The notes under the pieces are model-generated. The model saw only the letters and a program-made list of their open reading frames with translations. It was not told where the DNA came from and ran no database searches. Position numbers and translations under genes: made by a program. A DNA stretch of 60,000 nucleotides from positions 4,983,001 through 5,043,000 of the forward strand of contig NC_087073.1 of NCBI RefSeq assembly GCF_026151205.1, in the 5' to 3' direction. This stretch comes from Bolinopsis microptera. Its lineage: Eukaryota; Ctenophora; Tentaculata; Lobata; Bolinopsidae. Below are positions 130 to 54,230 of the stretch, one piece after another. Each line of letters begins with the position of its first letter. The stretch's first letter is position 1.

Positions 130-1206
130 CCTCCTACATGGACGATGCTTCTATTCGGAAACCTGTCAGATCTAAAGCAGGTTCGTGGTCTCGGTTTAGG
201 TTGCTATCTGGCGGACGGCGGTTATTATTTGTTTTTAGGTGTGATTCGTCACGTGTCTACGAGCCTATCAATGTTTTCGCGTGTATCAGGCTTTGCATCT
301 GGTTAAATACCTTATCAATATGACTTGTTCACGTTACAGGCTACTGGCCCCGTCTTTGAGTAATCTCCATCTCCACTATGCGCTTCAATTAAATATGGCC
401 CTATTCATTGTAATCTCACTAATTAGCCTAATCAGCATGTACTAATTAGCCTGCCCGTTTGTAGATGACGGGGTGGAAGTATCATGGAACAAGTATAAGA
501 GTGTTCGTCTTGCTCACGCAGGTGAATTGTTACCTTCATATTATCTTGAATCTAGTGGAGATGGAGTTTAAATTTAAGAAAGCATCGGCATTAAATAAAT
601 CACTTAAAATTGTTGAAATTAATAGGTTTAATAGCTTACATTTAAAGCTTACATTTACATTATAGCACACATCTCTAACTTATCTCCGTTGCCAGGCATG
701 AGGAGCAAATGGTCAGAAGATGAGGAAGACAAGGTTAAAATATCAGCGGGAAATGGAGCTAAGAAACGTTCTGATAGCAACACCCAGGAGTTCCCTTATC
801 CAAACGCTGTTGAACCGAAAGACGGTAAAAATTGTTATTTTTATATGCTTGTTGAGATTTATTTGCATGTTTGTAAAAATCAGTTTTGCGCTTTGAATCA
901 AGTCTGTAGTACGAGCATTCATGAAAAGGCCAAGCATTGTATTCGTTAAACCGCAAGCTCTCCATGAAGAAGTTTGTAACTGTATTTTTATTCCAATTAT
1001 TTATAACAGTTATTGCTTACTAGCATAGTTAAACTGTAGACTGTAGACGCCTGTCAAATTAATGTTATCGGCAGCAATAAACGTCGGTAATGGCGGGAAA
1101 GTAAGAAATTTGTTTTGACACGTGACGTCCTACATTCATAATCTTTTCAGGAAAATCAGATGCCTTACTGACAGAGTATAACAGTCCTAAAATAGATTTC
1201 TCTTGA
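130..1206 (+). CDS. 3' end of a multi-exon gene, four exons (partial at left edge)
   Basis: I read four exons: 130-180, 465-521, 696-824 and 1151-1206, ending in TGA. Each follows a pyrimidine-rich AG acceptor (for example the one ending at 1150). Donors follow at 181, 522 and 825; the first (GTTCGT) is weak. Every internal exon starts and ends in phase 1, so the frame is kept throughout. The visible 97 or so residues are hydrophilic and acidic/basic (SYMDDASIRK, then DDGVEVSWNK, then GMRSKWSEDEED, then GKSDALLTEYNSPKIDFS at the C-terminus). They show no membrane segment or catalytic motif. A run of symmetric phase-1 exons ending in a polar tail would fit the cytoplasmic tail of a receptor or adhesion protein, but that is inference. 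The start and main body lie outside the window. The product is not recognised. Confidence 0.6.
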
Positions 1207-2943
1207 CGAAGAATTCAGTTCTAAGGATTTCATCACAAGAGCAAGACTCGACCAACAGTGGAATGCGTCACAGACTTTTTATTTATTTCTATTTCGTCGG
1301 AAGCTGAACAATTTGTGGAATGTCACGAATTTTTGACAGAATTTATTGTTTGAAGCTGCGAGAACATATTTGTAACATCCACAATTCCACACTTAATACA
1401 CATTAAATAGGAGACTTCTGCTCCGATTGTTTTGCGCCGTTAAAGTTAAACTTCAATCAACGATTGATTTTCGCTTGTTTTGGTTAAAAGGGGATAGTTG
1501 TAACTTCTTCTTACTTTGACCGTTGATTTAAAAGGGTATCTTATTAATTTATACATGTTTAACTAAATTATTACTATAGCTACCAACACCAAGACATCGT
1601 CGTGTTTTTGAATTTTGTGTTCACGTTAACCCCTGCCGTTACTACATATAAATATAATATGCGTATGAGTAATGAGATTCGATGAATTTTAGTGGATTTC
1701 GATCCATTGAGACGTTTACTCTTTAATTATCTCCTTCGCACCACTCCTATAGTATTACCTTGAATGATAATTGTAATTTGGAAGCGAGATTTTTCATTTT
1801 ATCAAACTTTTTAATTCTCGATTTTCTTTTGTCAATGTCTTATCGTGGGAGCTGTTCACTTTAATTCACACCGTTAAGGATTTGGCACGAAAAAACGAAC
1901 TTTTACAGTTTCATTCCTTGTGAAATGTGAAGAACTCAATTTAAAAAACGTTTACAAATGCTGTAAGTAAACTATTAAGAGACAATAAAGAATCAAATTT
2001 ACAAAAACTGACCGCATTTTGCGTTCTTCGACTTAAACTTAAAGTCATACATAGAACTAGACGAATCATGTGATAGACGTTTAAAAAGTTCTACAAATTG
2101 GTCAATTTCTATTGCTGTAAAAGTACACGTGTGCTGTAATAGTACACGTGTGCTTCAACAGTCGTACAGTGCATGTGTGACGATAATTGGCGGGTTTTAA
2201 AACATGAGATGAAGATGTTGAGAGGCATAAAAACTATAAACGCTGTTGGCCCATAAAAACTCATGCTTCATAGTCATTAAAAATTCACGAAAGCTATGGC
2301 AATTTTTGTCCAAGTTTTACAACTGTCCCATTTATCGTCAATAATATCAGTATCACTGATAATACCCCTCCATACTCGAGCGTGCTAAATCACTCTACAG
2401 TCGATCTTCGAAATTGTTCTAAAAGGGTCCCCGACAGTTGAAACCAACTTCAATAGATTTATTTTCGGACGCTGATTCCGAATCACCCCCCATGACTAAG
2501 GGTTAAAATGCTCCCCTGACGAGATATTAGCGAAAAACTGTTTTGATCACGTGATATGACCGTATAAGGAAGTTAGTCTAATTTCTCGATAGGGTTAGGG
2601 TTTCAGCATATGCTTTTGTTAAGGTCAAGGATTGGGTTAGGGTTAGGGTTGGGATCAGATTAAAGGGTTAGGGTTTCGAATACTAATAGTCGTTCAGGAC
2701 CAGCTAGAGAACGGGTTGAAAAAGTCAGGTGACAGTCGAGTGTAGAGTGATTAATCATCATCCCTCCATACTGCCTCTGGCAAGCCAAAGTTCGTATACC
2801 AGTAGCAATAGTATAGTATAGCCACGATCACTGATTGTCGGTATTTCCTGTAGGATTATTCGGGACAACTACAACATTCCCGGCATAACCTGTGTGCATA
2901 TTCAATCTTATTCTGTCATAAGTACATTATCAGGTGCTAAAGT
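1207..2943. other. intergenic, repeat-bearing
   Basis: No supported gene. It holds a doublet of a 14-base unit containing CACGTG (about 2123-2155) and one copy of a dispersed repeat with TTAGGG-like tracts (2460-2680). Confidence 0.5.
2460..2680 (+). repeat. dispersed repeat family 1, copy 1, with TTAGGG-like tract
   Basis: The block starting GGACGCTGATTC and continuing with GAATCACCCC matches a second copy at 31942-32135, in the same order and ending in GGGTTAGGGTT-type sequence in both. A shorter match is seen at 54800-54845. The telomere-like motif sits in the 3' half of each long copy. This looks like an old dispersed repeat, not a telomere. Confidence 0.6.
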
Positions 2944-5011
2944 TCAAATGTTGGGTAATTGGTGGCCTGGAGGATGTTTCAGTTTATCCACCTTCATGAA
3001 AAGTTTACAAACCCTTTGTTCCACCATGATATCCCTGGCAGTATTTGCCATACTCAACCGTCTGTGTTCCTCAGGGTAAGGTTCAGTGACCGTGTTATTT
3101 CTGTTTTGTCTCAGGACGGACCAGAACCCGTTCTTTATAACACTGGTGTTGATACGATGTGAGGACCTGGGGTGACGGCCCGCTGACCTACTCATCTTGC
3201 TTGAGGAAATGTCGCCTCTCTTGTCGGACACTGTGCTGCAACTGCTGGCTCCAGCTGACCCTGGCTTTGGTCTGAGTTTCCCTGAAAAGGGTCTGTACAG
3301 TTCCTCCTCTTCGGACTCTGAGTCGGAGTGCAGTGAGTTTGATTCTATGGACATTTTGTTGAGCCGTTTGCCAAGCCATGCGTCCTTGATGTGAGGTGAT
3401 TTCCTGAGTTTTGTTGGCCTGGGTCGCTTGTTCCTCATGTCATTGTCAGCCGAACTCTGGAGTGCACTGGACGGAGCTGACCGGATCCTGAAATGAAGTT
3501 TTGTTAAAAACTTGGAAAGCTTTGGGAAAAGGGGTTCATGAAATTGTGTCTTAAGCATGAGCAGAAGTCAAATAAAATTGAAATAAATCTGGCATTTAAA
3601 ACCTTCTTAATTGTCTAATATTAATTTCGACACATTTTCCATAAATATAATTTACACTACTAAATATTACTCATTATTGCAAAATTTATCAACGGCAGCT
3701 ATAGAAATACTCCAGAACAACCGGACTTTTGAATTTGGTAGTTTTTTATAGTATAAACATAGCCTGCAAGTGGAAATAATGTTCCACTAAACGAAGTATT
3801 TTGTAACCCGCTTAAAAATTCCGTTGACTGAAACAGAGATAATCCGTAATACTTGGCTGTTAGAGATGATAAAAATGCGAACCATTGGCATATTATGCAC
3901 TAATTGCAGTTGCACTTGCTGAACCCTCGAGAATACGTATATTCAGCTTCAGAATTCAGAGCCCAAAAGTGCACAATTTATGATTTATAAAATCTACGTA
4001 CAAGTTTTTTTGTATTATTTCCAAATTTCCAAGCATCCTAATAGAGCAAACAATTTGTTTTTGATGGCACAATAAAAAATCAAACGCTTATTAATTCAGC
4101 AACAACGAATAAACGAGGCTAACACTTACAGCTAATAATCCATAAAAGTGTGCTTCAACAATAAAGATAACATAAAAAGAGTAAAAGTTCGTTTCACGTT
4201 TCCATACAATTTAAAATTGATAAAATACGATCGTCCACATAGTATTTCACTTTTATTTCACGCACGTATCTCACAGAGATTTATAAAAAACGTAAATATT
4301 ACGTTTCTCTCTCCTTAGTTACCTGGTAATTGCTCTACATTTGGTCATCGCTGATTGGTTGACGTTTCTAGTTCCTTCTGGAGACAGCTTTCTCTGCTCA
4401 TCGTGCAGAACACTCGTGGTTTTGTAGTCTAGGATAAAACCCATAGCCTCTTTGTATCTGATAACAAAGGGGCGTTTAAATTTATGTCCACTGATCACAG
4501 AAAAGGGGTCTGGAAGTGGTTGGGAAAAGGAAAATGTTAAGTATCGGGACAGTAGACCCTTGAAACTTTATGTCTGTAAATGGTAAAAAAGTAAATTTCC
4601 AGTTTTGAAATTGAGGGATCATTTACTTTACTCGCCTTCTGTCAAGATGATTCATCTCCTTATCATTCTCTTTAGGATTCCTTGTCTTGATGAACTCTTT
4701 CTCTCGGTTAATCGAAATCTGTACTCGTTTGTTCTAAGAAAATTGTACAATTTATAAGTCTGTCACTGGTTTAAAAAAATCTAATCTCCATCTTGATTAG
4801 AGAATCAACCTGTTAATTCCCAAAATGATCCCATCCACAAACCCATTAAAAGCTAACCCCTTACTTGGTTATTGAGGTAGGTAAGTTTTCTTTCCAGAAG
4901 TTTTTCCTCCTTCCTGTTGCTGAACCTCGCTCCTCGCCTGCTATCATCTAACTCTCTGAGTCTCACGCCTGTTCCTGACCTGTGGTCTACCACTGTGCCG
5001 TGTGAAGACAT
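2944..5011 (-). CDS. four-exon gene for a 321-residue charged, low-complexity protein of unknown function
   Basis: Minus-strand exons are 5011-4865 (ATG, MSSHGTVVDH), 4733-4627, 4490-4323 and 3487-2944 (stop). Phases match at all three junctions: 0, then 2 (AA+T), then 2 (AG+G). The third exon reads KFKRPFVIRYKEAMGFILDY and the last opens with IRSAPSSALQSS. The N-terminal 85 residues are rich in E, K and R and could form a coiled coil (NRKEEKLLERKLTYLNNQ). The middle is basic. The last exon has an acidic Ser/Glu patch (SDSESEEEELY), a Ser-rich stretch, and a better-ordered C-terminus (SMANTARDIMVEQRV, CKLFMKVDKL). No signal peptide, membrane segment or catalytic motif is seen. I do not recognise the family. 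The start is the first ATG after a possible AG acceptor just upstream, so a 5' untranslated exon is possible. Confidence 0.72.
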
Positions 5012-22060: not shown

Positions 22061-22460
22061 TAGAAACATTTTCACAGATGAACATAATGTCTATTAATAT
22101 TTAATGGGACGTTTACGATTTTCCGACTTCTTTAAGATCTGTTTATTAATCAAACCGAACGTTAAATTTCGTTTTAAAGCCTGCGGTTTCGGGATTTTGA
22201 AACTTGATTTGGCACACGGTTGATCAGATTATGAATTTTCAAAAATCGAATGATTAAAATTGTTTATAAAATCATGCATCATGGATATTACATTTTGTTT
22301 GTTACCTGTAGGAACAACTTAGAAACTTTCCGAGTTTTATTTCTTATCTTAATCGATGAAGGTTTGAATAATAAGTGAACCATATATGTTAACTGTGTAC
22401 GGAGCAATATTAAATCAATATTTGTGCCAGAAAATTCTGGTTAGCTCTACTCAATGATCA
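22061..22460. other. 3' flank of copy B
   Basis: Similar to the 3' flank of copy A (12120-12512, opposite strand), which extends the duplicated unit past the stop codon. No gene. Confidence 0.45.
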
Positions 22461-22471
22461 ATCAAACATTT

Positions 22472-24892
22472 TAACACCACAGTACCAACCACAGTACCAA
22501 CCACAGTACCCACCACAGTACCAACTACAGTACCCACAACAGTACCCACTACAGTACCCACCACAGTATCCACCACAGTACCCACAACAGTACCCACCAC
22601 AGTACCCACCACAGTACCCACAACAGTACCCACTACAGTACCCACCACAGTATCCACCACAGTACCAACCACAGTATCCACCACAGTACCAACCACAGTA
22701 CCAACTACAGTACCCACTACAGTACCCACCACAGTATCCACCACAGTATCCACCACAGTACCAACCACAGTACCAACTACAGTACCCACTACAGTACCCA
22801 CCACAGTATCCACCACAGTACCAACCACAGTATCCACCACAGTACCAACCACAGTATCCACCACAGTACCAACCACAGTACCCACCACAGTATCCACCAC
22901 AGTACCAACCACAGTACCAACTACAGTACCCACTACAGTACCCACCACAGTATCCACCACAGTACCCACCACAGTACCCACCACAGTACCAACTACAGTA
23001 TCCACCACAGTACCCACCACAGTACCCACCACAGTACCAACTACAGTACCCACTACAGTACCCACTACAGTACCAACTACAGTACCCACCACAGTACCAA
23101 CTACAGTAACCACCACAGTACCCACCACAGTACCAACTACAGTACCCACCACAGTGCCCACCACAGTATCCACCACAGTACCAACTACAGTACCCACTAC
23201 AGTACCCACTACAGTACCAACTACAGTACCCACCACAGTACCAACCACAGTATCCACCACAGTACCAACCACAGTACCCACCACAGTACCCACCACAGTA
23301 CCCACCACAGTACCCACCACAGTACCCACCACAGTGCCCACCACAGAACCAACTACAGTACCCACAACAGTACCCACCACAGTACCCACCACAGTACCAA
23401 CTACAGTACCCACAACAGTACCCACCACAGTACCCACCACAGTACCAACTACAGTACCCACCACAGTACCAACTACAGTACCCACAACAGTACCCACTAC
23501 AGTACCCACCACAGTATCCACCACAGTACCAACCACAGTACCCACCACAGTATCCACCACAGTACCAACCACAGTACCCACCACAGTATCCACCACAGTA
23601 CCAACCACAGTACCAACTACAGTACCCACTACAGTACCCACTACAGTACCAACCACAGTACCCACTACAGTACCCACAACAGTACCCACCACAGTACCAA
23701 CCACAGTACCAACCACAGTACCCACCACAGTACCCACCACAGTACCAACTACAGTAACCACAACAGTACCCACCACAGTACCAACTACAGTAACCACAAC
23801 AGTACCCACCACAGTACCCACCACAGTATCCACCACAGTACCAACCACAGTACCCACCACAGTACCCACCACAGTACCCACCACAGTACCCACCACAGTA
23901 CCCACCACAGTACCCACCACAGTGCCCACCACAGTACCAACTACAGTATCCACCACAGTACCAACCACAGTACCCACCACAGTGCCCACCACAGTACCCA
24001 CCACAGTACCCACCACAGTACCCACTACAGTACCCACCACAGTACCCACCACAGTACCCACCACAGTATCCACCACAGTACCAACCACAGTACCCACCAC
24101 AGTATCCACCACAGTACCAACCACAGTACCAACTACAGTACCCACTACAGTACCCACCACAGTATCCACCACAGTACCCACCACAGTACCCACCACAGTA
24201 CCCACCACAGTACCAACTACAGTACCCACCACAGTACCCACCACAGTACCCACCACAGTACCAACTACAGTACCCACTACAGTACCCACCACAGTATCCA
24301 CCACAGTACCAACCACAGTACCCACCACAGTACCCACCACAGTACCCACCACAGTACCCACCACAGTGCCCACCACAGTACCAACTACAGTACCCACAAC
24401 AGTACCCACTACAGTACCCACCACAGTATCCACCACAGTACCAACCACAGTACCCACCACAGTATCTACCACAGTACCAACCACAGTACCCACCACAGTA
24501 TCCACCACAGTACCAACCACAGTACCAACTACAGTACCCACTACAGTACCCACCACAGTATCCACCACAGTACCCACCACAGTACCCACCACAGTACCCA
24601 CCACAGTACCAACTACAGTACCCACCACAGTACCCACCACAGTACCAACTACAGTACCCACTACAGTACCCACTACAGTACCCACCACAGTATCCACCAC
24701 AGTACCCACCACAGTACCCACTACAGTACCCACCACAGTACCCACCACAGTACCCACCACAGTACCAACCACAGTACCCACCACAGTACCCACCACAGTA
24801 CCCACCACAGTACCCACCACAGTACCCACCATAGTACCCACTACAGTACCCACTACAGTACCCACCACAGTACCAACCACAGTACCCACCAC
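22472..24892. repeat. 2.4-kb minisatellite, 12-bp unit CCCACCACAGTA, about 200 copies
   Basis: Units differ mainly at two or three positions (CCCACC, CCAACC, TCCACC, CCAACT), and blocks of variants recur, giving higher-order structure. Because the unit is a multiple of three and one frame on each strand lacks stops, there is an open plus frame from about 22459 to 25031 (Pro-Thr-Thr-Val repeats, then about 47 non-repeat residues) and an open minus frame from 24892 to 22451 (Gly-Thr-Val-Val). The plus frame has no ATG before the array and no signal peptide. A mucin-like coding exon cannot be excluded, but non-coding satellite is simpler. Confidence 0.85.
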
Positions 24893-24921
24893 GAGGATAC
24901 CTCTATCTCATTCTCCCATGT

Positions 24922-25671
24922 CACGTGACAGTGAGTCCCCACGTCTCCTAGTCTGTGCTGAGAAGAGTTCTCACAATTACCACCAGGTCCCTAGCTGGTC
25001 TAGCTGGTTCACTGACTCCACACCAACATAATTGTAGTTGTTAGTCAGTTTACTGGTCCTGATTAGCCATCACGGACAAGAGTGCTCTCCCAGCCCCCAG
25101 CCAACGGGACCAATCTGACCGCTTGTCCGAGAAGAAAACCACCACGTGACCCACAACGTGCGAACCACGTGGAGAATACAAACAGCTGCACTTGAATAAA
25201 CCTTGCTCATTTGTAAAGAAAAGCGTTCCCCTCAGCACCTGTTACTCTCATTAGGGAGCTGATTAACGATCGCCTAATCCCCGATTAGAGCTATTTAATA
25301 AACCTTGCCCGCTAAGCCTGTGATTGGTGCTTTGAACAATAAAACTCCGAGGACAGAGGGACCCCAGGGGCTCTCTAACCAGCCAACATTTAATAACTTA
25401 GCAGAGCACTTTACTGAGTAATTACTACGCAGTTTGTATTTAGACGTCACGTGGGGGAGCCCCGCATTGTGGCGGTGATTGAAGTGCACTGTCACGTGAT
25501 CGTTTCGAGACCACGTGACCCGCAATCAACTCCCACGTGGGCAATGTGCACGTTCCTAAAGACCCGCTCTGTGGTGATTGGCTCCTCCTAAAGGCCAGCC
25601 TCACACTGATTGGTTGCCCCGGGACTTGTAATAAGTGCTAATGGAGATTGATTTCGGAGTAAGTCCACGTG
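24922..25671. promoter_or_regulatory. promoter-like stretch with eight CACGTG E-boxes
   Basis: CACGTG occurs at 24922, 25143, 25166, 25448, 25493, 25512, 25534 and 25666. ATTGG/CCAAT-type motifs lie near 25322, 25576 and 25610. The stretch is more GC-rich than its surroundings. No gene start was found next to it, so the target is unknown. E-boxes of this kind are bound by bHLH-zipper factors of the USF, MITF and Myc classes. Confidence 0.45.
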
Positions 25672-28600: not shown

Positions 28601-28870
28601 GCACTTTAAGTTTAAGCACGATATTGATAACATGCAGTTTGGTTTTACCATGAAAACACTGTCTTAGTAAAGTCATGACAGTGAAACGTACTGATATTGA
28701 TAGTTTTAAAGTAAACCTTTCTTTCCTGAGGCTTGAAGTTGCACCTTTTCAAAAATGTGCACTTAAGCCTAAGGTGGAGGTCAACCACAGGGAACTATCT
28801 GCAACATAAACTCAGTTCATTTGTCAGACGCTGCCTGACCCATTATCACCTCGTATAGCCGGGCCGGAGA
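25672..28870. other. intergenic, no supported gene
   Basis: Many overlapping frames on both strands but none with coding character. A degenerate (TGTC/TGTT)n tract lies at about 26560-26640. GCACGTGCAC-type sites occur near 26140-26215. Confidence 0.4.
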
Positions 28871-28875
28871 AGAGG

Positions 28876-29577
28876 GTACATACCGTACTGTACCGTACTG
28901 TACCGTACTGTACCGTACAGTACGGTACGGTACCGTACCGTACTGTACCGTACTGTACCGTACTGTACCGTACTGTACCGTACTGTACCGTACTGTACCG
29001 TACTGTACCGTACTGTACCGTACTGTACCGTACCGTACTGTACCGTACTGTACCGTACCGTACCGTACCGTACCGTACCGTACCGTACCGTACCGTACCG
29101 TACCGTACCGTACTGTACCGTACCGTACTGTACCGTACTGTACCGTACTGTACCGTACTGTACCGTACTGTACCGTACTGTACCGTACTGTACCGTACTG
29201 TACCGTACTGTACCGTACTGTACCGTACTGTACCGTACTGTACCGTACTGTACTGTACCGTACTGTACCGTACTGTACCGTACTGTACCGTACTGTACCG
29301 TACTGTACCGTAATGTACCGTACTGTACCGTACTGTACCGTACTGTACCGTACTGTACCGTACTGTACCGTACTGTACCGTACTGTACCGTACTGTACCG
29401 TACTGTACCGTACTGTACCGTACTGTACCGTACTGTACCGTACTGTACCGTACTGTACCGTACTGTACCGTACTGTACCGTACTGTACCGTACTGTACCG
29501 TACTGTACCGTACTGTACCGTACTGTACCGTACTGTACCGTACTGTACCGTACTGTACCGTACTGTACCGTACTGTT
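28876..29577. repeat. 0.7-kb tandem array of TACCG/TACTG pentamers
   Basis: Most of the array is the decamer TACCGTACTG; blocks of pure TACCG occur near 29055-29112. At about 28915-28932 the strand switches (CAGTACGGTACGG), making local palindromes. GTACAT and CATACCGTAC motifs sit at both edges. The long open frames in it are by-products of the repeat. Confidence 0.85.
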
Positions 29578-29589
29578 GTACATACCGTA

Positions 29590-31110
29590 CAACAGTTCAT
29601 GAGTTTATGTTACGGTATGAAAAATGTATGTCACGACACTGAACACTTTTATTGGAAAAGTATGACCAGGAATAGTCATCATCATTAATTTCACTTTTCA
29701 GCAGAGCCAAAATTAACCTTGGTGTTTTAAGTTTAACTTAAGCTAGTTCACAAGTTCAACTCACATGAGCGTGCGAATAATCTGGATGGGCATGTGGAGG
29801 TCAGCACGCTGAGTCAAGTTTAACTGACGGTCCACATTGACAATATTTTCTTTGTGAGATTCCGAGTTTCCATGGTTAGCTCTGACATATCTTTTAATTG
29901 ACTTAAACTTGCACTCGATTGTGTAAAAAACGTCAATAAATTGGCATGGCATGAGCTGAGGTGTAAAGAGGTGCTTTGAGCGGCGTTACTTTTAAGTAGA
30001 CTAAAAGCCTGTTATAAATTTACCTGGACGTCTGTAATTACGTGGACGGATGTGACCAAATCGTTTCAAATACCATGGAAATGATAAACAACCACAAGCA
30101 GATTAATGACCTAAATACGGGTAGCGATTAAACGGGCGGTGCCATTGCTTCAGCATTTGTGAGCGCCTTCAGCTCCGCCGAGGGGCGGAAAGTTGGCGGT
30201 ATGTTCGTGACGTAGGTTAGGGGTGAGGTTATGGTGGCAGCGTAGTAAATGCCGTGGTAGCATATAGTGGCGTCGATATAGTTACTGCTAAACCTGTGAA
30301 ACGCATCGATAACCATTTTAAATCTAACAATTATCAAAAACTCGTCCATGTCATCATGTCAGTTATGCAGTTAATAACTTCGTAGTTTTCCCTGCTCCTT
30401 GAAGTAAATTAAACCCCTATGCTAAACTCTATGTTATACGTATTGCGTGTTTATTTGCAAAAAATTGGTCCCTTCATTTGATAGCGTGACGGTCACCACA
30501 TAACCCATATGGAGGTCGCCGCATGAACATTGGTTGGCTGCCTTCACAATTACAAAAAACGCATGCTGATCACTATATGAATTGCATGGCAGTCACTATG
30601 ACCAAACATGCCACATGGCAAACATCATGATGACCACTATATTATATTTATATTGATCACTACATCAACCGTATCGCTGACCATACGCTTTTCAACACAA
30701 ATGGATGAAATAATTCTGCTCCAATCACGATTCAGGCAAATTCTCTTAGTCTTAAAGGTAAAATACGTTCACTTTTATTGTATCTGTTCCGGGTCTTCCT
30801 TCGTTCTTCATAAAAACCCATTCAAATATCAGTTCAAGTACGAATTTTGAATACAATCTTCTAATTCTATTTGTTGGGCGTGGAAATATGAAATATAAGT
30901 AACTTCAGTTTGATCCATTTTATAAGCTAAAATCCAAAACTAAAACCCTTAAAACGTCCGATCACCAAATAATAATTAAAGGATCATAAGGATATCTGCG
31001 CACTCTGGAGATCGGTAACCACTTCGACAATTACAGCTATGTACATTGTACAGTCTGTTATAAGTATAATCATTAATTAAAACTTACATCGTAATGATGT
31101 TGAAATTTTA
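29590..31110. other. intergenic, no gene seen
   Basis: No coding or repeat signal that I can support. Confidence 0.35.
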
Positions 31111-33139: not shown

Positions 33140-34026
33140 ATGCAGGGCGCAACGAGACATACAAGTACCACTCTGCTACTGTTCACAGTGCTCCTGCCAG
33201 CTGCCCTGACAGACTACACTCCTCACAAACTTGAGTACTGCCAGAACTTCGTGGAGCTCAAGAGACGAGGGATTGATCGTGTCAACATGTGCCCGGGAGT
33301 TAACAGGATCTGCTGTGCTCACTGGGTTACCGGCGCTAAACCACATAATGGAAGGTACAAGAACTCGACCGTAAGATTTCAGAAAATCACTTTGACTTTA
33401 GTCTCAAGTTCCGACATTACCGTATAAACTGGTGGCCCTCTCTTCATCGCTTGTCCCTTAAAATTTCAACATGTAATTACCACTCTACATTCTACAATCT
33501 TTCATCACTCAAAATATCAAAACTTGATTATAAGACTGATCACTTAAAAACACTCTACTGCGCGCGCTTCTGACTCATTTCCTCACCCCCTCCCGTCCCC
33601 AGTGCGGTAGGTGAAGATCATAAGATGGATGTGAAAGCGTACTGCTGCAACGATGACACGAAGTGCTGCCGTGGTAAGTGCTGTAATAAAGACTCCTACT
33701 GCTGCAGCCAGCACTCTCTCGAGCTCGACGCCCCGCACGTCTGCTGTCCCTCCAGCAGTCACTGCTGCAACAATTCCCGCGGAGAGATGGTCTGCTGTCC
33801 GGAGTTGGTCAAACAGATATGGATTGTTATTGCTATTATATTGTTGGTTTATACTGCTGCTAAGATTTCAAGGGCTCTGAAGGTGTATTGTAATATGGTC
33901 CCGTTTGAGGATGACAATATAAAGCTTTTAGATGAAGATGAAGTTAGGAAAATGAAATATTGTTTCTTTGGGTGTGATACTCAAGCTTTGAAACAGGGTA
34001 AATATGATAAGATTTTGTCACTTTGA
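33140..34026 (+). CDS. cysteine-rich type I membrane protein, two exons, about 213 residues
   Basis: Exon 1 is 33140-33354 and exon 2 is 33603-34026 (stop TGA), joined in phase 2 (AG+T = Ser). The ATG at 33140 lies just after an acceptor-like TTCTTTCTAG, so an upstream untranslated exon is likely. The N-terminus has a signal peptide (hydrophobic core TTLLLFTVLLPAAL). The ectodomain is packed with paired cysteines: MCPGVNRICCAH in exon 1, then in exon 2 YCCNDDTKCCRGKCC, KDSYCCSQH, HVCCPSSSHCC and MVCCPE. A single hydrophobic helix follows (IWIVIAIILLVYTAA), then a cytosolic tail of about 55 residues with acidic LLDEDE. The repeating Cys-Cys spacing suggests a small disulfide-rich domain on the cell surface. 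I do not assign a family. Confidence 0.78.
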
Positions 34027-42383: not shown

Positions 42384-45300
42384 ATGATTTTAGGTGAGTT
42401 TTGTTGATTTCTGCTGGGCCGTCCCACTCGAATGTTTCACGGTAAATTCTGCAACTGCAAGGCAGGAAAATGGGCCCAAATCGCTTGTCGTTTGAAAATA
42501 GGCAAATTTGTCTGTCTTCTGGCCATAATCAAATTTAAAATTGTTGACCCAATATAAGCCATCTTTCCCAATTAAAAGAAAAATTATGCCAGTTGGGAAT
42601 ATGGGCCTTATTTGTTTGTAATTCGACAATTAGCAATTTTACCGGGTTTTTGTAGACATGATATTTTCAATTGTTTCGATATTAGCTAAATTTTTGGCGG
42701 TCTTAGTGATACTGAGAGAATTTGAACTAGGAGCTTAATTCTAGGTGTTTCTAAAATTTTCCTTCAAGTTGCAGCGATAAATTTTTCGAATGTACGCAGA
42801 ATTTATTTGAAAGATAGTTGATTCATTATTTGTGCCACGAAATCTACAAAAATTAAGCCAGGAGTGTTGATAAGATCATAATTTGCCCAATTAAAATAAA
42901 TTTAAATATTATCAAAATTATTCAAAATTTTAACCTGATAGCAAATTATGATTCAACGTAATTTATAAAAAGAATGCAAAAAATATTTCCAGCCATAGGA
43001 TAAGATTTTTCATCCTCACACCTAGCTTTATGCACAATCCATCTCAATCACACATAAAATTGTGATATATTTCAGTTGCTTGATTTTTGTCTTCCTCGCT
43101 CCAGTCTGACATTTCCCCCAATTTTGACACCTAGTGACCGTATTATAATATTATCCTGTTTCAGAAAAACGTTTCCTGTGTAACGTGTGCTGCAAACAGT
43201 TCCAGCACAAAGGAAATCTAAACTCTCACATGAGGTCGCACACTGGGGAACGTCCTTACAGTTGCGATGTTTGCGAGAAAAGGTTCTCAACTTCTGGAAT
43301 ACTCAAAACACACATGAGGACACACACCGGGGAGAAACCTTATCTCTGCGATACTTGCGGCAAACGCTTCTCTCACATCGGCATTCTTAAGGTGAGATTT
43401 TGTCTTGTCACCGAGCATTTGTTATAGTTGATTTATTTTCTTATAATTTTTTTGATTTTTAGTCTAGTCGTTCGCCCTTTGTTTTTTGTTCTGCTCGAAT
43501 TTGCAATCTTTTTGCTTTGGTTTCCTCGAAATGAGTGTAGATTATTATTCGCTTCCCTGGACACTCTTACATATTGATATCTGCTCTCCCGAAAATAGTA
43601 GCAATTTGCTTTTGGATTTACTTGGCTTAAAATAGGCAAATTTATCAGATTGAATTTCCTACTTTGTTGATTTGCTTTGCTTGAAATTGGGAACATTATT
43701 TATTTACCATTTGATTCAGATATCTGCCATATCACCTTAAAACATGGCACAAATAATATCCTGGAGGGGGATTATTTAAAACATAAAAGTGATTCAAAAA
43801 GTTTGTTTAGCAGGAGCTTTCAAAATTCATTTGTAAATCGTCTTTAGCTGTATCGCCGTAATTATTCCTTGAATTTTCTCACGAAATTTTATTTTAAATT
43901 TCGGCAACGGCTTTGAATATACTGAATCACACATTTGGCTTAAATTTCATTTTCTGTTCTTTTTCGTTCATATCTTTTTTATTTACAGTTGCTGGAGGTA
44001 AATTTGTATTTACTCAGCATGATATTTATCAGCGTAGCCCTCAGAAGTTTTGACAATTTTTTTGTACGGCCCAGTTTGCTTATCCCTATTTTTCGTTCCG
44101 ATATTTTATTTTTAAATATTTTCTAACGTAGTGTTCATTTTCAGAATCACATGCTGACACACTCTGGTGAGCGACCACACAGATGCCCGATACCAGACTG
44201 CGGTAAAGACTACAGCCGGGCTGCTAACCTCAAAATCCACATGAGATCACACACAGGTCAGTTTTTAGCCTAGCCTCCCTAATTTTAGCGTCAAAATTTC
44301 TCGGTGACGACTCCTCGCACGCCATGTGCTGAAAATATGAACTTTGTTGCGATTTTGCGGAGGAGTTTACGCGGGAACCCTTAGGGCGAGTCGTTTGTAC
44401 TCAGGGTCAATTCTTCGCTCATTAAGAAGTCTCTAAATAACTGCTCCGGGGTTGAGCGGTCATTGCATCCACGAATAGTAATTCTATTAGGTCAGCACAT
44501 CAGTTCAACCTGCTCTGTTCCTTTCAACGCGCCAAAACTCGCACATTTTATTTACCAAATATTTTTTCAGGTGAACGTCCATTCCGATGTGAATACCCGA
44601 AGTGTGACTGGACTTTCGTATCGAATGCTGATCTGAAAGTGCACATGAGAACACATTCAGGAGCTAAATCCTTCACCTGTAACGTGGAGAACTGCAAGAA
44701 AGAGTTCCTTTACAACCAGGACCTCAAAAACCATATCCTCTCGCACAAAGAAATCAATATGTAAGTATTGCGCACTGATTTATTGCGCCTCGCAACCTAG
44801 TCACGTACGGTTTTATTTTCCGTTTTTGTAAAGATAGTTTATATATTTTTAAAACAGTGTTTATTTGATCATTTTCAATCAATTCATTATTAAACAAGCG
44901 CCGATTTGTCATAATATCCCGACTAAACAGCCATTATCTTCAGGTCTATAACCGATGACTGCAACTTCCCAAGACCCCCAGATTATCAAAACTATACCCG
45001 AAAGAGCTGCCAACTACGACTGGATTTCGCTTGAAAGTAAGTTCTAAAACTAAACTAGTCCATTGAAACTCAGTAATTTAATAATATGCCCAATTTTCAA
45101 CAGAAAGAAAAGAACCCCATTGTTCTATGTAAGACTTTCGTAAATCTTAATATTGTAAAAGAAATGTACGTTCTGATCCGATTTCTAACCAATCACTATC
45201 TTCAGGTGAATTCAAGAAGATTGAATCCTTTGGAGACTGTCAGAAATCCCACTCTGGACTAAAACCCTACTCCTGTTCGATCTGCTCTCACAGCTTCTCG

Positions 45301-46218
45301 ACACTGTCGAAACTGAAGCAGCACATTAAAGAGCACGACACAGTGAGCGAAACCCGACCTTACAAATGCACTGACTGCTCCAGAAAGTTCTCTCAGCCCC
45401 GCAACATTCACAGACACATGGTGCTGTCTCACGGCAAGCCGGAGACTACTGGACCCTTCACTTTAGCTCTGATGTCACCGGAGAGGATACCCTTCACTGA
45501 CAAGAACTGTCAAGGAGAGCGAGGCAGGAAGCGACCACTGGAAGAGCTCCATAAGTCTGCCTTCACCCCGGTCGCCAAGTCTCCCAATACTTCTCCTGAC
45601 GGAAAGCTGACCCCACCCGCCAAGGTGTGTCGTAATGGTAACCCCACCAAACTGTTCATCACCAACGTGAAGAGTCTGCGAGAGGAGAACCCGTTCCCAG
45701 ACATCACACCACTTGACTCACCGGACTCCGGAAAACTAAAGATAAAAGAAGAGAAGAAGTCGCCCCGTCACCACCCCTACACCAAACCTTCTCCAACGAA
45801 GACCAGTTCTAGACAACCCCCTAGACTGGCTCCTAAACCTCCGCAATACGCCATAGTGCAGGCTGTAAACCTCCCTACTCTACACGCCTTCAATGTCAAG
45901 ATAGAGAGACAAACCAGCTCTCCTCCAGCAGCAGTAACCAGCGCCCCACATGTAGCAGTCCCAAAGTCTCGACCAGTAACCAGCTCACACACAGCAGTCT
46001 CCACTGCCCAACCCTCTCCTCCAGCCAGGATTCACACTCCGGAGACCCTGCATTCGATCACAATGGTGGATCAGATCAGGTACGCCGCTGTGATGACGTC
46101 ATTCGACCACTTAGTGCAAGGGTATCTAGCTCACAGGACCTACCAGTCTCTAAAGTGCTTCTACAAGTGCCTGACGACTGCTAAACAGTCCGTGGAGTTA
46201 GGGACAATGCCATGGTGA
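42384..46218 (+). CDS. C2H2 zinc-finger transcription factor, eight fingers, with a frame break in exon 5
   Basis: Exons are 42384-42393 (ATG ATT TTA G, GTGAGT donor, in-frame stop upstream), 43165-43391, 44145-44256, 44571-44760, 44944-45036 and 45206-46218. Fingers in order: [54 protein letters not shown], then after a spacer CSICSHSF and CTDCSRKF. Fingers 1-6 are joined by TGER/TGEK-type linkers (SGAKS before finger 6), and fingers 4-6 have the four-residue Cys-Cys spacing. The remaining 260 or so residues are Pro/Ser/Lys-rich and probably disordered, ending in a helical piece ([17 protein letters not shown]). It is expected to bind DNA in the nucleus. Exon 5 read on from exon 4 hits TGA at 45032; the frame needed for exon 6 is one base away, and the C5 run at 44975-44979 is the likely switch point. 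AATAAA lies near 46391 and 46804. Finger architecture recalls metal-response or ZXD-type factors, but that is a guess. Confidence 0.75.
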
Positions 46219-50218: not shown

Positions 50219-52362
50219 ATGTACACAAAATTAAGGGCGAATATGGATGATCTTGAACAGAAAGGAGAGGAGATATTTAATACCTACTGTTCTTCAAGTG
50301 ATAAAAGTCCAGTGATGCTACCAAGAGCACCAAAGCAGAAGTATCCTGATATTTTTCCAGAGGATGACCAACCAGGAAGTAATATTCAAAATCGCATAAT
50401 CCAACAAGCAAATTATGAAGCCGAAGTTGTTGTCTATAGGGTGCTGGAAAACGTGAATGAAAATATAATAGTACTTCACAATTTCGAATATACGCACCAC
50501 CTATACAGATTATGTGACAAAACTCATGAAAGAAAAGGATGTGATTTATGCAAGAAGAGAGCAAACGCTATACATGGTGAATGTGATTTCTTGATAGTAT
50601 GTGGGAATAGTTTTGTCATAATTGAAGTTTAAAATGTGTCTCCAAACAACAGTCCTGAAGTCAATCAGGAAGGAAGATTAAGTGGTTCTTTCCGTAACTC
50701 CCTTGAACAGAGACACAAAATTGAGAAACTGATAAAGGCTATCGACAAAGACGCCAATGTTCAGCAATTCACTGCTTTTCCTTCTTGTAGCAATATATAT
50801 AAAGAACACTTCCACGCCACTGATGCTGAAATCGAGACTATGATATTCAAAGAAATCCTTGCTGATAATGACACTTTTAGTGCTTGGTGGAAGGAAAATG
50901 TAAGTTCCCCCGCTGAGACTAGAGGCAGGCCACTAAAATGCCATTTCAAAACTAGAAATGTATTACTTGCTATATGGGCTTCGGAGATCCAAGGAAAGAA
51001 AAAATCGGACGTGAACACACTGAAGTGTAGTTTAGCAGCAACAATTCATGACATTGATAAAGGGCTCAAAAGGGGGAAAATCACCTTCCTCTCTAGGAGA
51101 CTTGATCAGAACCCTGGAGTTATTGAAGCTCCTCCTGTTATAAAAAAGTATTTGGAAGTTGAACATCTCAATGAACAGCAATATGATGCATTCATTTCAG
51201 CTGAGAAACTGTTGTGGATACATGGGCCTGCTGGGACAGGTAAAACTATTATCGTGTGTGGAAAAATGATACAATTAGTGGCACAATCTGCTGAGGACTG
51301 CAAAGCTGTAGTATTTAAGTTCAGTGGGGCAGGAAATAACTCACAGCTTTATCAAACTGCTTTAGTGGAATTACAGAAGGACAATGTAGAAATGAGGTAT
51401 GACTATGAAGTTATACAAGCAGAACGAACACAACCAGCACCATCAAAGATTTCCTATACAATATTAAAGAAAATAAAGGACAACAAAGTGATCGTTATAG
51501 AGATAATAGGGATGGTTCGTTTGAAATGGTTAACAGACATACTAAGTAGACTTAAAGAGCTAAAATCTAACAAATGTCATTTCTTCCTGGACGATGTTCA
51601 AAGTGTTCTGGGATTTAATACCTGCGATGTATCAACTGAGTTTATGAGCGCTGTGGTAGATTTATCCAGAGATAAGTTTTCCATTTGGCTATCCTGTGAC
51701 ATTGCAAAAAGTTGGAACTATCTTCAACCAGAAAATGTTTCTGATTCAGCCAATCTTCTTACTCAGCAGCCCCTGAATCAGCAAATATATCTTACTATGA
51801 ATCTAAGAAATACTCGTAATTTATCACATATCCTATCAGTAATCAGGAATGAATATATTGAAGTAAAATCAGAAAATCGTGAGATTCTCAATGTCCTGCT
51901 ACCTATACAAACTTATGGTCATTACATCCATGGACCAAAAACTGTCATTCATATTTTGAAAGAATATATAATAGCTATGATAACATAGTCGATATCTTTA
52001 GTAGAGAGTTAGCTAAATTAGATTCATGTTTGGATATTGGTATCGTGCATAGATATCTTAGTAGTAAATTAGAACAAGGAATAAGAAGTGCTATAGAACG
52101 ACTGTCTTCCAACAGTAATATTGTCATGTGTGAGTGTGAGTGTAGCTATTCAGCTGAATGGCCAGTGGTCATAGTTTTATACAAATTACGGAGATATGAT
52201 GGCGAGAAGGACTTGACAGGATTATATTCAGCAATAGCAAGGGCACGTGTTTACTGCTCAATCATTTTGTACCTGGATAATGATATGAAATGGGAAGATC
52301 TTGTGCACACAAATACATTGTCCCAGAAACTGAGGAATTTGGCTAAAATCAGCATCACATGA
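50219..52362 (+). pseudogene. intronless NERD nuclease / superfamily 1 helicase gene, disabled by one nonsense codon and one frameshift
   Basis: The first segment, 50219-50632, encodes 137 residues. An N-terminal piece is followed by a PD-(D/E)xK-type nuclease core: Glu in YEAEVVVYRVLE, Asp in GECDFLIV, then IIEV. TAA follows at 50630-50632, in the codon where the motif Lys is expected. The same frame reopens at once (NVSPNNSPEV) and runs to 51988 with a Walker A (IHGPAGTGKT) and a Walker B-like HFFLDDVQ. The helicase C-terminal part continues at about 51965-52362 in another frame (YDNIVDIFSRELAKLD, then EWPVVIVLYKL and LYSAIARARVYCSIILYL, matching late UvrD-family motifs). Full length would be about 710 residues. 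No introns are seen, although nearby genes are split, so retroposition or transfer is possible. A start at 50243 (MDDLEQKGEE) is an alternative. Such nuclease-helicase fusions act on nucleic acids; the role in animals is unclear. Confidence 0.8.
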
Positions 52363-52904: not shown

Positions 52905-54112
52905 AACAGTTACATACATGTTACATGGTAAGGTCTCCTCCTAGTCGTTGGAGTGGCCTGCATCACACACATCGCGTTGGCGGCGTAACATATGTCTCCA
53001 CTGTACTCGGTTGGTAGCCAAAGCTTCTGTCGTGTTGTTGTCGATGTTTTCAACACCTGTAAACTTAGCAGCATCTTCGAGTACGCAGGACTTCCAGTTC
53101 TTACGGGGTCTGCCCCTTGACCTCTTTCCATAATTTGGCTTCCAGTTCAACAGAAACCTTGGTAGTCTGGCATTCTAACTTCATGTCCATACCAACGTAA
53201 CCTGGCAGCACTGATGAAAGTCTCGACTGACTTGATGCCAGCCCTCCTAAGAACTTCTTCGTTGGTCACATGAAAGAACCATTTAATCCTAAGGATCCTT
53301 CTCAAGGAGGTTTGATGGAAAACCTCGAAGCGTTTCATCTGCTTTTTGGTGGTGTTCCAGACTTCAGCTCCATACAACAAGATGGTGAGGACAGCAGCCC
53401 TATAGATCCTGATCTTGGTTGGAGTCTTTATAGTTCTGCTATTCCAAATGTTCCAGAGCTGATGAAAGGCGCCATTAGCCTTCTGGATACGGACATCCAG
53501 GTCTCTGTTGATTGTCCCATCCCCACTGATAGTTGCACCCAGGTAGACAAAGTTGCTAACCTGCTCGACGGGTTCACCCTCAACCGACAGCTCAATACAA
53601 TCATCCTTGATGAAAGGTCGCTGGGAGGCGCACTTGCTTACAGCCATGCATTGGGTCTTCTTTGCATTTATTCTGAGCCCAGCGTAGGAGCTGTAATGAA
53701 CTAATAGATCAGTTGACTCCTGTAGGCCTTCCCCTGAGTTGTCCATAATAGCCATGTCATCAGCATAATCGGTGTCCAAAATGACCTTTTCCTCGACCGT
53801 CTTCGTCTCTTTCTGCAGCACTGCGCCTTGACTGATGATCTTGTTGGTCTCAGCCAGAAATGCAGAAAAGTTTAGGCAGAAATTAAAGACAGGAGGTGCT
53901 TGAATGTCGCCCTGACCTGTGCCTGAGTTAACATCAAACCAGTCTGTCAGCTCCCCATTAACCCTCACGGCACTCATGGTACCCCCAAAATATGACTGAA
54001 ATATTCTGACATATTTTTCAGGCAGCCCATAGTGTCTCATACTGCACCAAATAAAGTCCCTTCTGATAGAATCGAACGCTGCCTTGAAATAGACAAAATT
54101 AATGTAAAGAGT
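52905..54112 (-). mobile_element. truncated, frameshifted non-LTR retrotransposon (reverse transcriptase 3' part)
   Basis: The minus strand reads from about 54112. Motif A region is NFVYFKAAFDSIRRDF. Then come MRHYGLPEKYV, a thumb-side NSGTGQGDIQAPPVFNF, the active-site block DTDYADDMAI, GLRINAKKTQCM, FVYLGATISGDG, LLYGAEVWNT, and the late-domain pair LRRILRIKWFFHV and ARLRWYGHEVRMPD. The frame breaks near 53150; the conserved tail (NYGKRSRGRPRKNW) continues in another frame to about 52910. The 5' half, including the endonuclease, is missing. In motif A the usual Asp of VDF is Tyr, so this copy is dead. It belongs to the broad RTE/L2/CR1-like group with C-terminal RLRWYGH and GRPRKNW motifs. 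The exact clade is not fixed. Confidence 0.8.
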
Positions 54113-54148
54113 AACAGTAAAACGAATAAATACTAGACAATTAGTTAC

Positions 54149-54230
54149 AGGGCGGCGCTCAGCCTGTCATTCCGCCGAATCCCTATTCCGCCGATTCTCT
54201 ATTCTCTATTCTATGTTTATGAACATAATA
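54149..54230 (+). repeat. dispersed repeat family 3, copy 2
   Basis: GGCGGCGCTCAGCCTGTCAT, then a tandem TATTCCGCCGAT-like stretch, ending TTTATGAACA as in the copy at 18474. A diverged third copy is at 55240-55290. Confidence 0.55.

What the first reader, a model, noticed from the sequence alone, without database searches (positions are those of the whole stretch)
50219..52362. Nonsense codon sits exactly on the catalytic lysine of a NERD nuclease-helicase
The nuclease core reads GECDFLIV, then IIEV, then TAA at 50630-50632, and continues in the same frame with NVSPNN. PD-(D/E)xK nucleases need Lys right after this E-x, so one base change (AAA to TAA) both removes the catalytic residue and ends the protein. 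The downstream helicase stays open for 450 codons in the same frame, so the stop may be young, may permit readthrough, or may leave a separately translated helicase. A second lesion, a frameshift near 51965-51985, argues for a pseudogene. The fusion resembles prokaryotic nuclease-helicase immunity proteins, and its intronless form in a split-gene genome raises retroposition or transfer.
Basis: partly seen in the sequence, partly recalled or inferred. Interest (0 to 1): 0.75.

Follow-up and report, generated by a model that had tools for sequence, protein, structure and literature searches.

The report
Broken copy of diversifying nuclease-helicase family
The flagged gene is a recently broken member of a large family of nuclease-helicase genes in what is probably a comb jelly; intact relatives keep the DNA-cutting part nearly unchanged while the helicase part changes unusually fast, as immune genes do.

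Summary
The frame reads GECDFLIV...VIIEV, then TAA at 50630-50632, then stays open for 451 codons; a frameshift follows near 51955-51985. In 48 intact paralogues aligned, Lys is invariant at that site (1 of 4 further long members has Ser). The locus is most likely a young pseudogene.

The assembly matches published figures for the ctenophore Bolinopsis microptera. It holds roughly 116 NERD/helicase loci over all 13 chromosomes, 72 with open frames of 690 aa or more. Single-exon coding is normal for the family (and for some other large genes here), not a sign that this copy was retroposed.

In six of six clades of intact paralogues, site models detect positive selection in the helicase half (LRT 19-57) and none in the nuclease half (LRT 0-3.7). 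The AlphaFold model is confident (pLDDT 84); its best PDB match is human SLFN11, followed by Upf1, SLFN14 and Dna2. One paralogue carries C-terminal ankyrin repeats.

Best reading: a fast-evolving, probably immune family with a conserved nuclease effector and a hypervariable helicase sensor. It resembles Schlafens and bacterial nuclease-helicase defences, without proven membership in either. Immune function is inferred.

The parts
50243..50629 (+). N-terminal piece: NERD (PD-(D/E)xK type) nuclease up to the EV before the missing Lys
   Evidence: aligned to 48 intact paralogues
50630..50632 (+). TAA nonsense codon at the position of the catalytic Lys
   Evidence: Lys in 48 of 48 aligned paralogues
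50633..51985 (+). rest of nuclease domain, linker and first part of the SF1 helicase, open in the same frame for 451 codons
51224..51247 (+). Walker A, GPAGTGKT
   Evidence: read; aligned
51590..51601 (+). Walker B / motif II, DDVQ
   Evidence: read; DD in 48 of 48 paralogues
51707..51709 (+). motif III position with Lys where 48 of 48 paralogues have Gln: a further departure from the family
51955..51985 (+). zone of the frameshift (second lesion)
   Evidence: frames, alignment
51986..52362 (+). C-terminal part of the helicase in a shifted frame (open 51883-52362), with motif VI-like ARARV at 52237-52251

Best explanation
The locus is a recently inactivated member of a large gene family of single-polypeptide nuclease-helicases in a ctenophore, most likely Bolinopsis microptera. 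Shown: architecture, family size (roughly), conserved catalytic residues, lesions, and selection pattern. Inferred: an intact member works as a cell-autonomous guard against foreign nucleic acid. The C-terminal SF1 ATPase/helicase recognises a fast-evolving target (viral or mobile-element nucleoprotein, or a viral inhibitor), and ATP-driven rearrangement lets the N-terminal NERD nuclease cut. The family grows and dies by duplication, and this copy is one of its dead members, losing the nuclease and everything downstream at once. Breakdown: broken family member in this assembly 0.9; positive selection in the helicase half 0.85; immune-type function 0.5.
For: Lys and both Walker B Asp in 48 of 48 intact paralogues, Walker A Lys in 47 of 48. 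About 116 loci, 72 with open frames >=690 aa, all 13 chromosomes, nine in one cluster at C13:8.01-8.06 Mb. M1a/M2a by half and clade c1-c6, several starts: helicase half LRT 57.4, 46.9, 55.5, 21.9, 50.6, 19.1; nuclease half 0.9, 1.2, 1.3, 3.7, 0.3, 0.0 (alike). Null simulations of c1 and c4 whole genes: 20 of 20 LRT <=1.5. Model-free: in 8 young pairs sharing no member pN/pS is 0.47 in the N-half and 1.52 in the C-half (Fisher p 1.4e-5 for the C-half). Sites with posterior >0.9: 74 of 1350 C-half codons against 10 of 1574 N-half codons; 12 positions, 11 of them in the C-half, recur in two or more of five clades. AlphaFold pLDDT 83.8, pTM 0.88; Foldseek best hit SLFN11 7.8e-13, then Upf1, SLFN14, Dna2. 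PADLOC RTasNERD-Hel, NERD+UvrD and Nhi models match 13, 21 and 21 of 47 members. NERD-helicase-ankyrin paralogue L099 (Ank_2 4.4e-44).
Against: No expression, infection or biochemical data. Pooled over 14 pairs of all ages the C-half ratio is only 1.00; averaged omega over the C-half is above 1 in 4 of 6 clades, significantly in 1. Gene conversion among paralogues was not modelled and can inflate site tests; the site-model code is my own. L099 lacks the Lys, so not every open member is an active nuclease. No full-length prokaryotic or viral relative was found with the profile. PADLOC matches also include many GajB helicase models, so part of the likeness is generic SF1. The species name rests on matching assembly figures.
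Confidence: 0.6

Rival explanations
1. Assembly or sequencing errors: the gene is intact and both lesions are artefacts of this assembly.
For: Two lesions only in about 2.1 kb; other conserved residues mostly kept (4 of 71 near-invariant columns differ, against 0-7 in intact members). No reads were available.
Against: Two independent lesions of different kinds would be needed, plus a changed motif III residue that none of the 48 aligned paralogues has. Other broken copies occur in the family (8 of 116 loci have stops inside matches).
Confidence: 0.1
2. A retroposed processed pseudogene of one family member.
For: Single-exon coding region; a LINE-like reverse transcriptase remnant lies about 0.8 kb downstream at 53147-54166.
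Against: Many intact paralogues are single-exon too. No direct repeat bounding the gene and no terminal inverted repeat was found. Its best-scoring paralogue is only 44% identical over the helicase piece, partial matches up to 50%, so no recent parent copy was seen among the candidates scored.
Confidence: 0.05
3. The family is the cargo or replication gene of a mobile element rather than a host immune gene; diversification reflects escape from host silencing.
For: Dispersed over 13 chromosomes in 92 groups at 50 kb spacing; long single ORFs; in 5 of 11 close pairs homology ends within 300 bases past the ORF.
Against: No common boundary in those 11 pairs; in 6 homology runs to (within 15 bases of) the end of the short piece fetched. 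Constraint on the nuclease with positive selection only in the helicase half in 6 of 6 clades; ankyrin fusion; acceptor-like sites upstream of the ATG.
Confidence: 0.12
4. Relaxed constraint, not positive selection, in the helicase half, with site tests inflated by gene conversion.
For: Pooled C-half ratio 1.00 over 14 pairs, with C-half pS 0.133 against 0.122 in the N-half; conversion not modelled.
Against: Catalytic helicase motifs kept; M2a beats M1a, which already allows neutral sites, in 6 of 6 C-halves and 0 of 6 N-halves on trees made from each half alone; c6 has three members and so one topology; in the 8 young pairs pS is not raised in the C-half (0.071 against 0.089).
Confidence: 0.13
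5. A working truncated nuclease fragment plus separately started helicase, or stop readthrough.
For: 451 open codons after the stop.
Against: The second piece is also cut by a frameshift and has a changed motif III; the first piece lacks the catalytic Lys.
Confidence: 0.03

Closest known systems
Prokaryotic NERD-helicases, incl. PADLOC RTasNERD-Hel (DRT-associated) and the NERD+UvrD candidate model
   Same: NERD nuclease followed by an SF1 helicase in one chain; RTasNERD-Hel matches L050 in two stretches, 3.7e-11; the bacterial protein L087 aligns over 340 helicase columns.
   Different: Low-scoring matches only; hhalign to L087 covers the helicase, not the nuclease; the animal family has an MLPRAP-type N-terminal motif and a CxxC before the catalytic Asp (consensus); no reverse-transcriptase partner was looked for across the family.
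Group III Schlafens (SLFN11, SLFN14)
   Same: Nuclease plus C-terminal SF1 helicase in an animal; SLFN11 is the best Foldseek hit of the whole model; PF09848 SLFN-g3_helicase matches 5 of 47 members; [quoted passage not shown]
   Different: Nuclease is NERD, not the Schlafen core; SWADL motif in 0 of 48; TM-score of the whole-length match only 0.33.
Nhi, a single-gene bacterial nuclease-helicase defence
   Same: Single-gene nuclease-helicase (PMC12904381, passages); PADLOC Nhi model matches 21 of 47 members.
   Different: In the three members whose ranges I saw, the best stretch is only the Walker A region; no nuclease similarity shown.
Hachiman HamAB
   Same: Idea of a sensor helicase restraining an effector nuclease (PMC12278908, passages).
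   Different: Two proteins and an SF2 helicase; used here only as a mechanistic analogue.

Membership tests
NERD domain (PF08378) | Match to the Pfam profile above its cut-off | tested here: met
   91 matches in the genome, all over the cut-off; 43 of 47 A1 members at E<=1e-3. The window's own first piece alone scores 14.3 of 22.1 bits.
PD-(D/E)xK nuclease | Catalytic Asp, then Glu-x-Lys | tested here: met
   E and K in 48 of 48, D in 47 of 48 intact paralogues; the window copy lacks the K; L099 has Ser. Activity not tested.
SF1 helicase / ATPase | Walker A, Walker B, motif III D..Q, motif IV R, motif VI R | tested here: met
   Each in 47 or 48 of 48 paralogues; fold matched by Foldseek to Upf1, Dna2 and PcrA (1qhg) structures.
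Schlafen | Schlafen core domain | tested here: not met
   None of the 17 Pfam families matched by A1 members at E<=1e-3 is a Schlafen core.
Schlafen | SWADL motif in the linker | tested here: not met
   0 of 48; motif definition from PMC8875196 (passages).
Schlafen group III | C-terminal SF1 helicase of the SLFN-g3 type | tested here: inconclusive
   PF09848 in 5 of 47 and 2 places in the genome; best structural hit SLFN11; generic SF1 kinship not excluded.
RTasNERD-Hel (DRT) | Profile match over nuclease and helicase | tested here: inconclusive
   Two stretches in L001, L005 and L050; 13 of 47 members at E<=1e-3; no curated cut-off is given.
RTasNERD-Hel (DRT) | Association with a defence reverse transcriptase | not tested
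   Neighbourhoods of paralogues were not surveyed; the RT near the window gene looks like a LINE remnant (by eye).
Nhi | Similarity beyond the Walker A region, including the nuclease | tested here: inconclusive
   Only the Walker A region in L001, L005 and L050; ranges in the other matching members were not shown.
Anti-viral or anti-element immune effector | Protects against or is induced by infection | not testable with these tools
   No expression or infection data.

The most novel reading that the evidence does not exclude
Ctenophores hold an undescribed immune gene family of around a hundred or more nuclease-helicases in which a fixed NERD nuclease is aimed by a hypervariable SF1 helicase under recurrent positive selection. 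It would be an animal counterpart, by common descent or convergence, of bacterial NERD-helicase defence and of vertebrate Schlafens, with at least one member extended by ankyrin repeats in the manner of NLR-type receptors.
Probability: 0.45. Interest if true: 0.85.

Novelty: new variant of a known kind. Interest (0 to 1): 0.62.

Why it matters
[quoted passage not shown] A published survey of ctenophore immune domains (TIR, NACHT, SRCR, C-type lectin) does not mention NERD in its main text (PMC11797021: 'NERD' and 'PF08378' 0 times; 'nuclease' 0 times; supplements not seen). A large family whose nuclease is held constant while its helicase is driven to change is a strong candidate for a front-line cell-autonomous defence. 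It would also give a natural experiment on which surface of a nuclease-helicase meets the enemy.

Tried and rejected
Relatives in prokaryotes and viruses: the GTDB contig scan gave three loci, two of which I read (L084, L085); both were unrelated P-loop proteins. A profile search of 398 genomes of one phylum, with at most two candidates scored per genome in the rows shown, gave 16 with matches; 16 of the 18 match rows lie in the Walker A region (profile 308-391), and of the loci I read (L087-L097) only L087, which came, is a NERD-helicase by eye. The viral contig scan found none. By sequence, the PDB profile search found only PhoH, PcrA and AddA at E 0.001-0.07. The glutamate-receptor route to naming the species settled nothing, as the rows do not name organisms; it served instead as a control for single-exon genes.

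Retroposition or mobile element: no terminal repeats bounding the window gene; no common boundary among 11 close pairs. Flanks fetched were short, so this is weak.

Age of the lesions: 326 of 6345 possible single changes in the pieces give a stop, so at neutral divergence 0.05 one stop or fewer has probability 0.028. This assumes neutral decay since inactivation and ignores the frameshift.

Selection: codons near gaps were removed; clades cover 27 of the 48 intact members, chosen as close groups on the tree; c5 was not run but was run by halves. L052 was left out of A1 (47 of 48), for no recorded reason. IQ-TREE omega parsing failed and was redone; one search failed and was redone. Because M1a had one start, one search repeated it with four starts; the result stood. 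The earlier unguarded pooling gave higher C-half ratios (to 2.33) and is superseded.

Full report
What is there. From the ATG at 50243 the frame runs through a NERD-type nuclease core to VIIEV, meets TAA at 50630-50632, and stays open for 451 codons; the last part of the helicase lies in another frame, so a frameshift falls near 51955-51985. Pfam finds a P-loop in the second piece (NPHP3_N 5.6e-07, UvrD 7.5e-04) and only a sub-threshold NERD in the first.

Where it is. The window is C2:4983001-5043000 of an assembly of 264.65 Mb in 232 contigs. The 13 contigs C1-C13, whose lengths came, are 15.2-26.2 Mb and sum to about 258 Mb. Published figures for the ctenophore Bolinopsis microptera are 265 Mb, 13 chromosomes, largest 26.2 Mb, N50 20.8 Mb, GC 38.5% (PMC11797021 Table 1, passages seen). 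Here C1 is 26,206,493 bases, the contig at the N50 point is C11 with 20,825,282, and the window GC is 39.3%. That paper gives 346 scaffolds against 232 contigs here. I take the species as B. microptera, by inference.

The family. NERD matches 91 places. The window's helicase piece gives 98 match rows, its own included, with 94 of 268 candidates scored. Merged by position they make 116 loci on all 13 chromosomes: 68 seen by both searches, 23 by NERD only, 25 by helicase only; 72 have an open frame of 690 aa or more and 8 have stops inside a match. The count is rough: some broken genes may be counted twice, and unscored candidates are missing. I fetched 60 loci from the rows; 48 of 60 have an open frame of 690 aa or more within the piece fetched. 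In those 48 the catalytic Glu, Val and Lys are invariant, as are Walker B Asp-Asp and motif III Asp and Gln; Walker A Lys is in 47. Of four further long members, three keep the Lys and one (L099) has Ser there; L099 also carries C-terminal ankyrin repeats, and L100 has a second, degenerate NERD-like half.

The window copy. It is a lone deep branch, 44% identical to its best-scoring paralogue over the helicase piece. Apart from the stop it departs from 4 of 71 near-invariant columns, within the 0-7 range of intact members, but one is motif III Gln, found in all 48. With one nonsense codon in about 2.1 kb, neutral decay beyond about 0.05 substitutions per site is unlikely (probability 0.028). 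The lesions are therefore young compared with the branch.

Single-exon form. It is common in the family. In the same genome 10 of 32 glutamate-receptor ligand-binding matches also sit in single ORFs over 900 aa. An acceptor-like site within 60 bases upstream of the ATG is present in 16 of 34 paralogues that could be scored (crude pattern, no chance control). In the L021 clade it is conserved, about 20 bases before the ATG. It could serve a 5' UTR intron or spliced-leader addition (that ctenophores trans-splice is recalled, not looked up).

Selection. In 14 pairs of intact paralogues sharing no member, with codons next to gaps removed, pN/pS is 0.40 in residues 1-362 (nuclease, linker, Walker A; Fisher p 5.9e-41) and 1.00 in 363-700; in the 8 youngest pairs it is 0.47 and 1.52 (p 1.4e-5 for the latter). 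Averaged omega per clade is 0.30-0.70 in the N-half and 0.81-1.49 in the C-half, the latter significantly above 1 in 1 of 6 clades. Site models, fitted with my own M1a/M2a code on trees made from each half alone, favour a class with omega above 1 in the C-half of 6 of 6 clades (LRT 19.1-57.4, two degrees of freedom) and in the N-half of 0 of 6 (LRT 0-3.7) (several starts; alike). Twenty null simulations of whole genes of two clades gave LRT of at most 1.5. Sites with posterior above 0.9 (naive empirical Bayes, five clades) number 74 of 1350 C-half codons and 10 of 1574 N-half codons; in the C-half they are commoner in loops (44 of 540) than in helices (23 of 531) or strands (7 of 279). Position 649 is picked in 4 of 5 clades and 503 in 3 of 5. 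Gene conversion was not modelled. In the young pairs pS is not raised in the C-half (0.071 against 0.089), which speaks against import from distant paralogues; over all 14 pairs it is 0.133 against 0.122.

Structure and kin. AlphaFold of L050 with A1 has pLDDT 83.8 and pTM 0.88. Foldseek's best PDB match is SLFN11 (7.8e-13, 743 columns, TM 0.33), followed by Upf1, SLFN14 and Dna2; among viral models the top named hits are helicases of giant viruses. Pfam's SLFN-g3 helicase matches 5 of 47 members, NERD 43 of 47. PADLOC models of defence nuclease-helicases match many members, best RTasNERD-Hel at 3.7e-11, but several GajB helicase models also match. A bacterial NERD-helicase (L087, from the genome that also holds L084, titled Pseudomonas oryzihabitans) aligns over 340 helicase columns. 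No close full-length relative turned up in the bacterial and viral scans made, so a recent transfer is not supported; other animals could not be searched.

How it most likely works. Shown: conserved nuclease and ATPase residues; selection signal in the helicase half alone. Inferred: the helicase half is the sensor, or the surface attacked by an opponent, and the nuclease the effector, as in Hachiman, where HamB is the sensor helicase and HamA the effector nuclease (PMC12278908, passages). The flagged locus is a dead member in a family with turnover.

Print. Searches for NERD with ctenophore (0 papers), nuclease-related domain with metazoa, NERD domain with helicase and expansion, and two of NERD, Mnemiopsis and nuclease-related (11 papers, 6 listed) showed no paper on such a family in the listings. 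The library holds open-licence PMC papers only.

Noticed in passing
L099 (C7:17768400-17772000), ORF 742-3600 +: NERD-helicase fused to C-terminal ankyrin repeats (Ank_2 4.4e-44), with Ser at the catalytic Lys position: perhaps a sensor that has lost its nuclease.
   Followed up: partly
L100 (C6:660200-663800), minus strand: A family member with two NERD-like halves in tandem, the first degenerate at the active site (by eye; Pfam calls only the second).
   Followed up: partly
L102 (C7:1986900-1990500), minus strand: A family member with a hydrophobic N-terminal segment and a repetitive insert before Walker A (by eye).
   Followed up: no
53147-54166 (-): LINE-like reverse transcriptase remnant about 0.8 kb downstream of the gene, opposite strand (by eye).
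   Followed up: no
22414-25031 and 28810-29642: Two long tandem-repeat tracts open in several frames (Thr-Val-Pro-type and Tyr-Arg-Thr-Val-type), not evidence of genes.
   Followed up: no
45151-46218 (+) and 33574-34026 (+): An ORF with C2H2-like zinc-finger motifs and a Cys-rich granulin-like ORF (named by eye, not by search).
   Followed up: no
upstream of the ATG in L021, L022, L025, L026, L028, L038: Conserved ttcatttcag just 5' of the start codon, a possible acceptor for a 5' UTR intron or for a spliced leader.
   Followed up: partly
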